In this document: positions 46,789-50,189 of the stretch, piece by piece | How the letters are laid out: each line of letters begins with the position of its first letter | Position numbering within the stretch: the stretch's first letter is position 1 | From: Rhodothermales bacterium | GTDB taxonomy: Bacteria; Bacteroidota; Rhodothermia; Rhodothermales; UBA10348 | Length of the DNA: 64,000 bases | NCBI GenBank assembly: GCA_040221055.1 | Contig: JAVJVN010000015.1 | Span: 1 to 64,000 of the forward strand | Direction of reading: 5' to 3' | The notes under the pieces: generated by a model | The model's database searches: none | Seen by the model: the letters and a program-made list of their open reading frames with translations, nothing else | What the model was told of the DNA's origin: nothing | Translations under genes and position numbers: made by a program

Positions 46789-48444
46789 CTACCGGAACCG
46801 CTCCGTCGTCTCGCGGGCCGGCAGCTGGCAGGATGGCCACTCGCGGGGCTCGCCCGAGCGTGGATCCATGCCGAGGTCTCGGCGGTCGCGTGAAATCCGG
46901 TCGCCTTCCGACGCCAAATACGTCAAGTACGCGGTGAGCGTCGCGTTGCCCTTCAGATCTTCCCAGGCAATCTTGTCGAACGTATCGCGGTTGGTGTGCC
47001 ACGTGGCGTTGCCGTAATCGTACGACGTGGCCGACAATGAAAACGCCGGCGCGCCCGCGCAGATGAACGAGGCGTAATCCGACCCGCCCCCGCCCGGGAA
47101 TCCCGGCACGTTCAGGTCGATGTTGCCGACCAGGATGTTCGGAAGCTGGGCGAACCAGCGCGCGAAATGCTCACCGGCCCCCACCAGGCCCTGCGTGGAA
47201 ATACTCGCAATCCGGCCCGTTCCGTTGTCCTGGTTGAGCAGCACCTGCAGCCCCTCCACGATTTCGGGATGATCCGCGGCGAACGCCCGCGATCCGTTCA
47301 GACCCTGCTCCTCGCCGCCCCACAGGCCGACTACAATGGTTCGCTTCGGGTTCGGATACACTTCCTTCAGGATGCGCATGGTTTCCAGCATGACCACCGA
47401 TCCCGTACCGTTGTCCGTCACACCGCTCGCGCCGTCCCATGAATCGAAATGGGCCGAAAGCAGCACGTATTCATTGGGCAGCTCGGTCCCGGGAATGGTC
47501 CCCACGACGTTGAAAACAGGCTGTTCGCCCAGGTCTTCGGACTCGGCGTTGGCGCGCAGTACCGGTCCCTGGCCATTTTCGGCCAAACGATACACCAGCC
47601 CGTAATCCTCGCAGCTCAGGTTGAAGGCCGCCGCCTCCCGGTTCATGGCGCGGAACGAATAGGTCATCGGGAAAATCCGCTCAATGCCCCATTGCCCCGT
47701 CCAGTAGTTGGTCAGGAATCCGAGCGCGCCGGCATCCTCAATCGCATTGATGATGTCCTGCCGTTCCATGCCGATGGCGTCAATACGCGCGTTCCAGGCT
47801 TCGCGGGCCGCGGCCCGGGCCTCATTGAACGACTCGACGGCGCCCCGCGGCCCGTGCTCTTCCCATGACGAAGCCGGACGGCAGCTGGGCTCGGCGTACG
47901 ACATGAGCACGAACTTGCCCCGCACACTTGGCAGCCACGCCTGGAAATCGCCCTCGGGCAGCATGGTCACACCGCCTTCGACCGGCCCGTTCGTTCCCAC
48001 GCTCCAGCCCAGGAGTTGTCCTTCAAGCGAACGTACGCGTGGCTCCAGCAAGTCGACATGCGATACGCCGCGCTGCCAGCCCCGCCACGTACCGTATTGT
48101 TCGAGCCCGGCATCAATCCCCCAGGAACGCATTTGCTCCGCGGCCCACTCGGCCGATGCGTCGTAACCCGGCGAACCCGTCAGCCGGGGCCCGAGCACGT
48201 CGGCCATGTACTGCGAAAGCGCGTAGACCTGCGACTGCTCCATGCCTTCTTCCCAGATGGCTTTCAGCACCGGATCGTCCACCGGAAAATCAGGACCCGT
48301 CGGGCCGCCACCGAATGGCTGCGCCAGCGCTGGCAGGGACGGAATGGTGAGGGCGACCAGCAGGGCCATCGCGCCCAGGCCGGCCCTCATCAATACAGAA
48401 TGGAAGCAGTTTTTCATGGATTTGGCAAATTTACTGAAAGACAT
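46789..48444 (-). CDS. M28 family zinc metallopeptidase
   Basis: A 551-aa exported peptidase. Signal region VLMRAGLGAMALLVALTIPSLPALAQ. The M28 catalytic set is visible: VLLSAHFDSWDGASGVTDNGTGSVVMLE (H and bridging D), GLWGGEEQGLNGS (catalytic Glu and metal Glu), VLLNQDNGTG (metal Asp) and NATWHTNRDTFDKI (last His). A PA-like insertion precedes the core. It is a two-zinc aminopeptidase or carboxypeptidase acting in the periplasm or outside. ATG 48417 is an alternative start giving a more compact signal peptide. Its C-terminus converges on tRNA-Lys. Confidence 0.92.
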   Translation of the reverse strand: MSFSKFAKSMKNCFHSVLMRAGLGAMALLVALTIPSLPALAQPFGGGPTGPDFPVDDPVLKAIWEEGMEQSQVYALSQYMADVLGPRLTGSPGYDASAEWAAEQMRSWGIDAGLEQYGTWRGWQRGVSHVDLLEPRVRSLEGQLLGWSVGTNGPVEGGVTMLPEGDFQAWLPSVRGKFVLMSYAEPSCRPASSWEEHGPRGAVESFNEARAAAREAWNARIDAIGMERQDIINAIEDAGALGFLTNYWTGQWGIERIFPMTYSFRAMNREAAAFNLSCEDYGLVYRLAENGQGPVLRANAESEDLGEQPVFNVVGTIPGTELPNEYVLLSAHFDSWDGASGVTDNGTGSVVMLETMRILKEVYPNPKRTIVVGLWGGEEQGLNGSRAFAADHPEIVEGLQVLLNQDNGTGRIASISTQGLVGAGEHFARWFAQLPNILVGNIDLNVPGFPGGGGSDYASFICAGAPAFSLSATSYDYGNATWHTNRDTFDKIAWEDLKGNATLTAYLTYLASEGDRISRDRRDLGMDPRSGEPREWPSCQLPARETTERFR

Positions 48445-48512
48445 TCGAGTGTCGGGGGTGGCGTAGTTTAGGCCGCCGCCGAGACAAAATCCCGAATACT
48501 GCCATTTTCAGC

Positions 48513-49604
48513 ATGACACGAATGAGAAACGGACGCCTCGTCAGATCATTTGCAGCCGCCGTCATCTTGTTTGGATCGACAGGTTGCGGTCCAAATTCGT
48601 CATGGGATGGCTCTGTAGAGCAGAGAGACGGAGTTTCAATCGTTACCAACTTCGGCAAGCCCCTTCTGACGGAGCCTCCGTTCATCCTGGAAGAACGGCT
48701 ACGCATTGGAGGCGACGACATGTTCGATGAGTTGCCCCTCAACCGGGTTTTCAGTGCGGTTCAGAATGACGCCGGGGAGATCTTTGCCTCAGACGTCGGA
48801 AATTACAGAATCCTCCAGTTTGACTCAGAAGGGGCATTCGTCAGATCGTTTGGAAGCCGTGGACAGGGTCCCAATGAATTCGGTTCTGTAGGCATTATCG
48901 CACTCAACAACGATAAACTCTTCGCCCAGGACACCCGAAAGCTCACGATTTCCAGCATTGATATGGACAAGGGATTGATCCTCGATCCCATCCACGTCGA
49001 ATGGTTTGGCTCTTGGGGCATCGATGACTCGGGTACCATACACATGTCCAACTTTCACGCTCTGTCGGCAGATGATTCCCCGAATGCAATCTCGTACTCC
49101 CGAACCGGCGAGGTAACAGGAGATTTCTTGTCATCGTACGATCCGATTCCGGACCTGAACAGTGTGGGGGCGCTTCCCAGTCTTCACTTTTCACCCTCCA
49201 GAGCCTATTTCGCGTGGCCGTATCCATACCGGATAGAAATACTCTCAAGCGACCTTCAGCCCATAAGCAACTTCGAGCTGAACGATGCTGAATTCATGCC
49301 ACCCTCCCAACCCAGAGTCGTGGACGGAATGAACCTGGGTGGCAGTCTGCCAACACAGATCAGCAACATCCTCGAGGTCGACGAGAAGTGGATCCTCGTC
49401 GAAGTGCGGTATTCAGACATGAAAAAGCCGCGCCGCGTCGACGTATTTGACATGGACGGCAGATACCTGTCCTATTTCCATCTTGAAGTGGGCGAAGGCA
49501 TTTCTTCCTACTCGGACGGAATGCTCTGGTCGACTATCAATGGCGGATTGCTGAGAGACGTGCTACCCTACATCATTGGCAAGCAGCTCCGCCCGACGGA
49601 ATGA
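48513..49604 (+). CDS. 6-bladed beta-propeller lipoprotein
   Basis: A 363-aa protein with a lipobox (AAVILFGSTGC, Cys at residue 25). The body resembles the 6-bladed propeller proteins of Bacteroidota: RVFSAVQNDAGEIFASDVGNYRILQFDSEGAFVRSFGSRGQGPNEFGSVGIIAL is the characteristic first blade, and RVDVFDMDGRYLSYFHLEV the last. Function unknown. It is noticeably less GC-rich than its neighbours, hinting at acquisition. It is divergent from the M28 peptidase and followed by the long repeat-bearing intergenic region. Confidence 0.8.
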   Translation: MTRMRNGRLVRSFAAAVILFGSTGCGPNSSWDGSVEQRDGVSIVTNFGKPLLTEPPFILEERLRIGGDDMFDELPLNRVFSAVQNDAGEIFASDVGNYRILQFDSEGAFVRSFGSRGQGPNEFGSVGIIALNNDKLFAQDTRKLTISSIDMDKGLILDPIHVEWFGSWGIDDSGTIHMSNFHALSADDSPNAISYSRTGEVTGDFLSSYDPIPDLNSVGALPSLHFSPSRAYFAWPYPYRIEILSSDLQPISNFELNDAEFMPPSQPRVVDGMNLGGSLPTQISNILEVDEKWILVEVRYSDMKKPRRVDVFDMDGRYLSYFHLEVGEGISSYSDGMLWSTINGGLLRDVLPYIIGKQLRPTE

Positions 49605-49692: not shown

Positions 49693-49699
49693 TGGCGCG
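49693..49699 (+). repeat. Outlying TGGCGCG box in phase with the array
   Basis: TGGCGCG preceded by TT and followed by AAA, exactly 126 bases (6 x 21) before the first array box at 49819. The five intervening phase positions do not match the box. Confidence 0.55.
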
Positions 49700-49818: not shown

Positions 49819-50019
49819 TGGCGCGAAACCGTCACTTTCTGGCGCGAATATCCCAGTATGTGGCGCAAAAGTGCAAAATAGTGGCGCGATTCGCCATGAT
49901 TCTGGCGCGCATTTCGCCGCCCGATTTGCGCGCCACAAACCGTGGGTTACGCGCCATGTTGATGTGAAAGCGCGCCACAAACCATCGTATTCGCGCCAGT
50001 CTTGCATCATTTCGCGCCG
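49819..50019. repeat. Inverted, 21-bp-phased array of TGGCGCG / CGCGCCA boxes
   Basis: TGGCGCG (third copy TGGCGCA) starts at 49819, 49840, 49861, 49882 and 49903, exactly 21 bp apart. The complement CGCGCCA (last copy CGCGCCG) starts at 49929, 49950, 49971, 49992 and 50013, also exactly 21 bp apart. Both halves are mirror images about position 49919. The 14-bp segments between boxes are largely unrelated, although CACAAACC follows two of the inverse boxes. A further inverse box sits at 50129-50135. Apart from the array and flanking 13-bp elements I find nothing in 49605-50269. A minus-strand frame crosses it (49832-50035) but is explained by the repeat. Confidence 0.93.
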
Positions 50020-50176
50020 CGTTTTGAACGCACACGCATGAATATTTCGATTATCTTGGTCGAAAAAGTGCCCTGACGCATCAGAATACGCCTTTGGACG
50101 CCTGCCAGTATTCCCGCGGGCGGTCTTTCGCGCCACTTTGGACGGAATGGGACGTGCGTAGCACATCTCCATTTAC

Positions 50177-50189
50177 AGGCTGAGCCTTC
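50177..50189. repeat. 13-bp intergenic element right of the 21-bp array
   Basis: CAGGCTGAGCCTT, matching the dispersed element. With the copy at 49640 it flanks the 21-bp-phased array on both sides. Confidence 0.65.

What the first reader, a model, noticed from the sequence alone, without database searches (positions are those of the whole stretch)
49819..50019. Mirror-symmetric array: 5 + 5 copies of a 7-bp box spaced exactly 21 bp
Seen directly: TGGCGCG(A) begins at 49819, 49840, 49861, 49882, 49903 and CGCGCC(A/G) begins at 49929, 49950, 49971, 49992, 50013. Spacing within each half is exactly 21 bp with no exception, and every left box mirrors a right box about 49919. An outlying box at 49693 is in phase (6 x 21 bp away). 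The 14-bp spacers vary freely, so this is not a simple tandem duplication: something preserves box and spacing but not spacer sequence. Twenty-one bp is two helical turns, putting all boxes on one DNA face, as for a cooperatively bound protein that nucleates from both ends, an iteron-like origin, or a nucleoid/partition site. No replication or partition gene is nearby. I know no described bacterial element with this design.
Basis: seen in the sequence. Interest (0 to 1): 0.88.

Follow-up and report, generated by a model that had tools for sequence, protein, structure and literature searches.

The report
Dispersed, helix-phased protein-binding DNA arrays
The window holds one copy of a small DNA element, scattered through this bacterial genome and its relatives, in which two facing rows of five short binding sites are placed every two turns of the double helix, most likely to be coated by a winged-helix protein whose close relatives sit in Fic toxin-family proteins and have similar rows of sites in front of their own genes.

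Summary
In detail: five TGGCGC(G/A) boxes and five inverted boxes at exactly 21 bp, plus a single outer box on each side (126 and 116 bp away). It is one copy of a dispersed element: four complete copies in this genome, at least eight loci in one congener, three in another, and many ~20-bp-spaced copies in a second genus of the family. Boxes are conserved above spacers between paralogues and orthologues. Outer-box distances (63 to 126 bp) fall on multiples of 10.5 bp, so the element acts as B-DNA, not as RNA or protein code. Spacers are not free: A/T and G/C sit at fixed positions. No Rep_3 initiator was found in the genus, and no target duplications were seen. The one gene class recurrently beside arrays encodes a winged helix (RR-T/S-x-Q-R type), stand-alone or fused to Fic. 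Fic genes elsewhere carry similar ~20-bp box arrays upstream, and box sequence follows the recognition helix (LQR with TGGCGC, LQY with TTGCGC). Best reading: an operator-type array for this winged-helix family, amplified and dispersed between genes. Binding, and what the dispersed copies do, are inferred, not shown.

The parts
49693..49699 (+). left outer box TGGCGCG(AAA), 126 bp (12 x 10.5) before the left array
49819..49909 (+). left arm: five boxes TGGCGC(G/A) starting 49819, 49840, 49861, 49882, 49903, 21-bp period
49910..49928 (.). centre between the two arms (19 bp); 32 bp in first-base register
49929..50019 (-). right arm: five inverted boxes CGCGCC(A/G) starting 49929, 49950, 49971, 49992, 50013, 21-bp period
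50129..50135 (-). right outer box (CGCGCCA on +), 116 bp (11 x 10.5) from the right arm
50177..50187 (.). AGGCTGAGCCT motif, also at an end of the C14 copy and at both ends of the C21 copy; may be the edge of the element or a separate repeat

Best explanation
The element is a dispersed, two-armed binding array for a winged-helix (wHTH) protein of the family found beside the arrays, whose closest relatives are the N-terminal wHTH domains of Fic proteins. Shown by sequence: boxes, spacing, inverted arms, outer boxes on integral helical turns, conservation of boxes over spacers, dispersal, and adjacency to wHTH genes. Inferred: one wHTH module sits on each box, on one face of the DNA; five sites two turns apart let the proteins coat the arm cooperatively while the A/T and G/C steps help the DNA bend; the in-phase outer box and the facing arm allow the two coated arms to pair or loop into one compact nucleoprotein complex. 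In front of a wHTH or Fic gene (G003:C99, G010:C77) such an array would act as an autoregulatory operator. The amplified intergenic copies, including this one, most likely form local silencing or insulating complexes, or titrate the same protein; this last step is the least certain. In this genome the candidate protein is the 182-aa wHTH encoded next to the C18 copy (G000:C18, locus L033:8348-8896).
For: Dispersed copies with the same anatomy. Helical phasing of outer boxes: period 10.5, R 0.735, n=27; period 3 gives R 0.06; sister genus R 0.93 at 10.5. Window and C14 copies are homologous, yet their left linkers differ by exactly 42 bp, four turns (126 against 84). Boxes conserved over spacers: 84% against 61% (window/C14, p=4.5e-4) and 87% against 68% (C99a/C99b, p=9e-4); 83% against 62% in G017/G020 orthologues (p=2e-5). 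wHTH homologues lie beside arrays in G000:C18, G003:C99, the orthologous locus of G007/G017/G020, and as Fic fusions in G017:C70 and G010:C77; none at E<0.01 in 2.0 Mb of unrelated loci. G010: six TGGCGCG-type boxes (the first reads AGGCGCG) at exactly 20 bp just upstream of a Fic gene with helix RRTLQRRL. Sixteen Fic upstream regions: 90 five-mer matches at 19-22 bp against 15 (sd 5, max 30) in shuffles, peaks at 20 and 40 bp; mean 5.6 against 0.98 in 900 control windows. Recognition helix LQY goes with TTGCGC (8 loci), [LVA]QR with TGGCGC (6 loci), no exception among those with either helix. Precedent: the Fic-wHTH protein CccR represses its own promoter by binding two inverted 10-bp boxes (PMC9755527).
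Against: No binding experiment. The window copy has no wHTH gene beside it and lies between convergent genes, so it is not an ordinary promoter operator. The stand-alone wHTH proteins match no Pfam or NCBIfam family at a meaningful score; their link to the Fic wHTH rests on a 28-residue match (E 0.002-0.25 pairwise). At several loci the array is at the 3' side of the wHTH gene. The helix/box correlation is confounded with phylogeny: all LQY cases are alphaproteobacterial plasmids. Some arrays (G003:C20, G003:C46, the window) have no wHTH gene within the fetched flank. The G017:C70 Fic gene has its own TGTCG-type boxes upstream, so its downstream TGGCGC array may be bound by another protein.
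Confidence: 0.62

Rival explanations
1. A miniature non-autonomous transposon whose ends carry several transposase-binding sites, as in Mu, Tn7 or IS21; the boxes serve transposition, the wHTH link is incidental or the wHTH is a transposition accessory.
For: Presence/absence at orthologous sites. In G007 at least five loci share 79-85% over several hundred bp. In genus g5 the two ends differ in a constant way, outer box at 62 bp on one side and about 115 bp on the other, as transposon ends do. The outer box begins with TG and ends with CA.
Against: No target-site duplication at the compared empty sites or flanks (sequence). Boxes stay conserved in resident copies, which a dead copy would not need. 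Similar arrays sit in front of Fic genes on unrelated plasmids. No Mu-transpos_C hit in the genus, although the control for that search was silent.
Confidence: 0.22
2. An RNA element: the transcript folds into one long interrupted hairpin.
For: The window array folds at -109.8 kcal/mol, z -8.9, and keeps z -5.4 when boxes are held fixed and only spacers are shuffled.
Against: With boxes fixed, most other copies show no clear excess pairing (z between -2.0 and +0.6). The outer boxes follow 10.5 bp, a B-DNA period, and the two sides have unequal linkers so they do not pair. No Rfam match.
Confidence: 0.06
3. Iteron-type replication origin or partition site.
For: Five direct repeats two turns apart resemble plasmid iterons; the C14 copy lies about 1.6 kb from dnaA.
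Against: Four or more non-orthologous chromosomal copies; no Rep_3 in the genus (controls rang); no A+T-rich centre; orthologous uvrC-DUF2461 and Gfo/Idh-LPD sites in congeners lack it.
Confidence: 0.03
4. Ordinary minisatellite expansion of a 21-bp unit without function.
For: Some arrays have similar spacers (G001:C64, G020 araB) and some lie in frame inside genes, where a multiple of 3 bp is expected.
Against: Spacer identity within an arm averages 31%, close to the 27% between arms, while boxes stay intact; outer boxes sit at half-odd multiples of 21 bp (73, 95, 116), which unit duplication cannot give.
Confidence: 0.04

Closest known systems
CccR (Yersinia pseudotuberculosis Fic-wHTH effector and repressor) and its operator
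   Same: A Fic protein with a winged-helix domain that represses its own gene by binding inverted 10-bp boxes (AGATAATCAT-N26-ATGATAATCT) by footprint and EMSA (PMC9755527)
   Different: Only two boxes, at one promoter; wHTH is C-terminal; here five plus five phased boxes with outer boxes, dispersed between genes, and the candidate wHTH mostly stands alone
Plasmid iteron arrays (P1, F, RK2 type; from general knowledge)
   Same: About five direct repeats two helical turns apart, bound cooperatively by a winged-helix protein
   Different: Inverted second arm, outer boxes, many chromosomal copies, no Rep_3 initiator
Mu/Tn7/IS21-type transposon ends and their MITEs (from general knowledge)
   Same: Several inward-facing binding sites at each end, unequal left and right ends, dispersal
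   Different: No TSD seen, no such transposase found, boxes maintained in resident copies
Intergenic repeats such as BIME/REP and Rickettsia palindromic elements (from general knowledge)
   Same: Dispersed, mostly intergenic, sometimes in frame in genes
   Different: Not a simple hairpin; built of a phased heptamer

Membership tests
Fic/wHTH autoregulatory operator | Boxes of one motif about 20-21 bp apart | tested here: met
Fic/wHTH autoregulatory operator | Array lies upstream of a wHTH or Fic gene | tested here: not met
   Not for the window copy; met for G010:C77 and G003:C99; other copies are at the 3' side
Fic/wHTH autoregulatory operator | Box sequence matches recognition-helix class (QR with TGGCGC) | tested here: inconclusive
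   The g5 and G003 proteins have Q-R as predicted; the G000:C18 protein, the candidate for this genome, has S-R (TLSR) with the R at the same place
Fic/wHTH autoregulatory operator | Protein binds the boxes | not testable with these tools
   needs EMSA or footprint
MITE with multi-site transposon ends | Target-site duplication at copies | tested here: not met
   flanks of outer boxes and two empty-site comparisons; old copies, so a weak test
MITE with multi-site transposon ends | Dispersed near-identical copies | tested here: inconclusive
   79-85% identical copies in G007; in the window's genome copies are only about 70% alike
MITE with multi-site transposon ends | Cognate transposase in the genome | tested here: inconclusive
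   PF09299 none, control silent
Iteron plasmid origin | Rep_3-type initiator | tested here: not met
Structured RNA | Pairing beyond the boxes across copies | tested here: not met
   only the window copy is strong

The most novel reading that the evidence does not exclude
A DNA-binding domain of the Fic toxin family has become a free-standing architectural protein in this bacterial family, with its own mobile, helix-phased array elements seeded between genes, so that toxin-type operators have turned into a dispersed chromatin-like silencing or insulating system.
Probability: 0.25. Interest if true: 0.87.

Novelty: new variant of a known kind. Interest (0 to 1): 0.72.

Why it matters
It gives a testable DNA code for the wHTH domains that accompany many Fic (AMPylation) proteins: the residue after Q in the recognition helix appears to go with the box, and box arrays about two helical turns apart occur upstream of most of the Fic genes examined. 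No description of such arrays was found in the library searched. It also shows that an operator-like array can spread through genomes as an element of its own while keeping helical phase.

Tried and rejected
Genome contigs and viral contigs pattern scans returned coding and tandem-repeat background and no convincing mirrored two-arm arrays; the single genome-contig scan was thus spent without giving the organism's name. Search with the whole element as DNA found only the C14 and C21 paralogues. sigma-54 -24 elements were considered because TGGCAC resembles the box, and dropped for want of a -12 element (sequence). Arrays in coding sequence (G007:C18, araB of G017/G020) were first taken as mobile insertions; the G007:C18 case is probably chance, the araB ones may be simple expansion. 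An early impression that G002 has no array is qualified by one weak profile hit (G002:C34, E 3.6e-5). wHTH and Fic searches of plasmids and viral contigs with the stand-alone wHTH gave nothing, nor did Fic in viral contigs. A PDB profile search gave only weak winged-helix hits.

Full report
Observation. The array is exactly as described, apart from one imperfect box in each arm. Each arm also has a single outer box, at 49693-49699 and 50129-50135.

A dispersed element. A spaced-pattern search shows further inverted arrays in the same genome at C14:384.65k, C18:170.7k and C21:26.5k, and in congeners: G003 (C20, C46, C96, two tandem copies on C99, more single arms) and G001 (C22, C64, C87). The typical plan is: outer box, linker, five (sometimes six) boxes at 21 bp, a centre of 19 bp to a few hundred bp (about 750 bp with a doxX gene in G001:C22), five or six inverted boxes, linker, outer box. 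A sequence-only profile of the arms finds all of these and many arms in a second genus (G007 11, G013 11, G017 7, G020 3), but almost none in 33 order-level genomes. There the period is 20 bp with an occasional 21, and the outer box is 62 bp away at one end and about 115 bp at the other.

Placement. The window copy lies between convergent genes, a beta-propeller protein and a 5'-nucleotidase. C18 and C21 are also convergent; C14 lies between uvrC and DUF2461, about 1.6 kb from dnaA. Orthologous junctions in congeners lack the element: 16 bp against about 640 bp for Gfo/Idh-LPD in G001/G003, and a very short gap against about 600 bp for uvrC-DUF2461. The same block upstream of an exopolysaccharide operon carries arrays in both G001 and G003. 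In G007 a ~600-bp element is repeated at several loci with 79-85% identity, some copies ending in an IS3-family transposase relic.

Selection acts on boxes and phase. Boxes are 84% identical against 61% for spacers between the window and C14 copies, and 87% against 68% between C99a and C99b; 83% against 62% between G017 and G020 orthologues. The distance from outer box to array takes mainly the values 63, 73, 83/84, 95/96, 105, 116 and 126 bp, multiples of 10.5 (27 distances, Rayleigh R 0.735, nominal p about 5e-7; no 3-bp period). The observations are not fully independent, because some loci are paralogues, but the window and C14 copies, which are homologous, differ by exactly 42 bp in the left linker. 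Centre lengths show the same tendency (7 of 9 within a tenth of a turn, p=0.03). In this genome the 21-bp unit has fixed A/T and G/C positions outside the heptamer, as expected for an extended, bent binding site. This is inference from composition, not a measured bend.

Not RNA, not an iteron. The window array can fold as RNA, but with boxes held fixed the other copies show little extra pairing, and no Rfam family matches. No Rep_3 protein is found in the genus, with controls ringing.

The likely protein. The gene beside the C18 array (182 aa), the gene whose start faces the G003:C99 array, and the 126-aa gene beside the orthologous arrays of G007, G017 and G020 are homologues (best E-values from 1e-8 to 1e-26). 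They share a winged-helix signature P-x-R-[ST]-x-[QS]-R...G-[IL]-[LV]-x-R-x-G-x-x-R-x-[ST]-x-Y. In G017:C70 the array's neighbour is a Fic protein with the same kind of wHTH, and in G010 six TGGCGCG-type boxes (the first reads AGGCGCG) at exactly 20 bp lie just upstream of a Fic gene with helix RRTLQRRL. The wHTH profile finds nothing in 2.0 Mb of unrelated loci. A caveat is that the profile was built from array neighbours; the G003 and Fic cases are the independent ones.

Fic genes elsewhere. Fic homologues on plasmids of Proteobacteria have arrays of 8-9 bp boxes at about 20 bp, often in both orientations, in front of the gene: over 16 genes, 90 five-mer matches at 19-22 bp against 15 expected, with peaks at 20 and 40 bp, and a mean of 5.6 against 0.98 in 900 control windows from the same records. 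The box follows the helix: LQY with TTGCGC in eight loci, [LVA]QR with TGGCGC in six, including Aromatoleum and Undibacterium where the same heptamer TGGCGCG occurs as in the window. Six further loci were fetched after the rule was written down: L491 (QY, TTGCGC) and L494 (QR, TGGCGC) obey it, L494 being close to an earlier one; in the other four no helix was extracted by the script. Phylogeny is a confounder.

Known precedent. CccR, a Fic protein with a wHTH domain, represses its own gene by binding two inverted boxes (PMC9755527). DNA binding by a Fic wHTH, without known specificity, is also reported for CbFic2 (PMC10628234). I found no description of phased arrays or of dispersed copies.

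Verdict. The element works like an operator array for a winged-helix protein of the Fic-associated kind. It is not filed as a Fic operator, because the window copy has no such gene downstream. Its spread resembles that of a MITE or intergenic repeat, but no transposase or target duplication was found. What the scattered copies do (silence, insulate, titrate) is open; local cooperative nucleoprotein complexes are the most economical proposal.

Noticed in passing
window 10280, 29290, 50177; G003 C31, C46, C50, C57, C69, C80 and others: A dispersed intergenic palindrome AGGCT(G/C)AGCCT, followed by TTCA in G001-G003 and TTCC in G000, sometimes in pairs about 150-160 bp apart with shared flanks; looks like a second, separate repeat family.
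   Followed up: partly
L041:4144-6372 (G020), L040 (G017): A 21-bp-periodic TGGCGC/GCGCCA region lies in frame inside the ribulokinase gene, adding about 150 residues of low-complexity sequence.
   Followed up: partly
L401:3-2168 (G003:C102): A six-box single arm lies in frame inside a DUF748-like protein.
   Followed up: no
window 46789-49604 against L363 and L364: The block M28 peptidase + beta-propeller + array is absent in G001, where 5'-nucleotidase is followed directly by DUF305; G003 has an AbiEii-like gene pair at the same place, so this is a variable site.
   Followed up: partly
L039, L456, L458, L460 (G007): Left ends of several arrays carry a relic of an IS3-family transposase (DNGSEFISKA...) and a run of 8-9 G about 18 bp outside the outer box.
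   Followed up: partly
L474 (G058): TGGCGCGATTC repeated at 11 bp, about once per helical turn, in a distant member of the order.
   Followed up: no
upstream of Fic genes, e.g. L475, L479, L482, L484: Box arrays at about 20 bp seem to be a general feature of Fic genes with an N-terminal winged helix; other loci show other boxes (L481 GGCGGATAAC, L490 AATCGTTTCA, L492 AATCTTGTCA).
   Followed up: partly
L037:8030-8080 and the equivalent in the second copy: The centre of the two tandem G003 arrays holds a strong hairpin GCAGCTCGAGC...GCTCGAGCTGC, conserved between copies.
   Followed up: no
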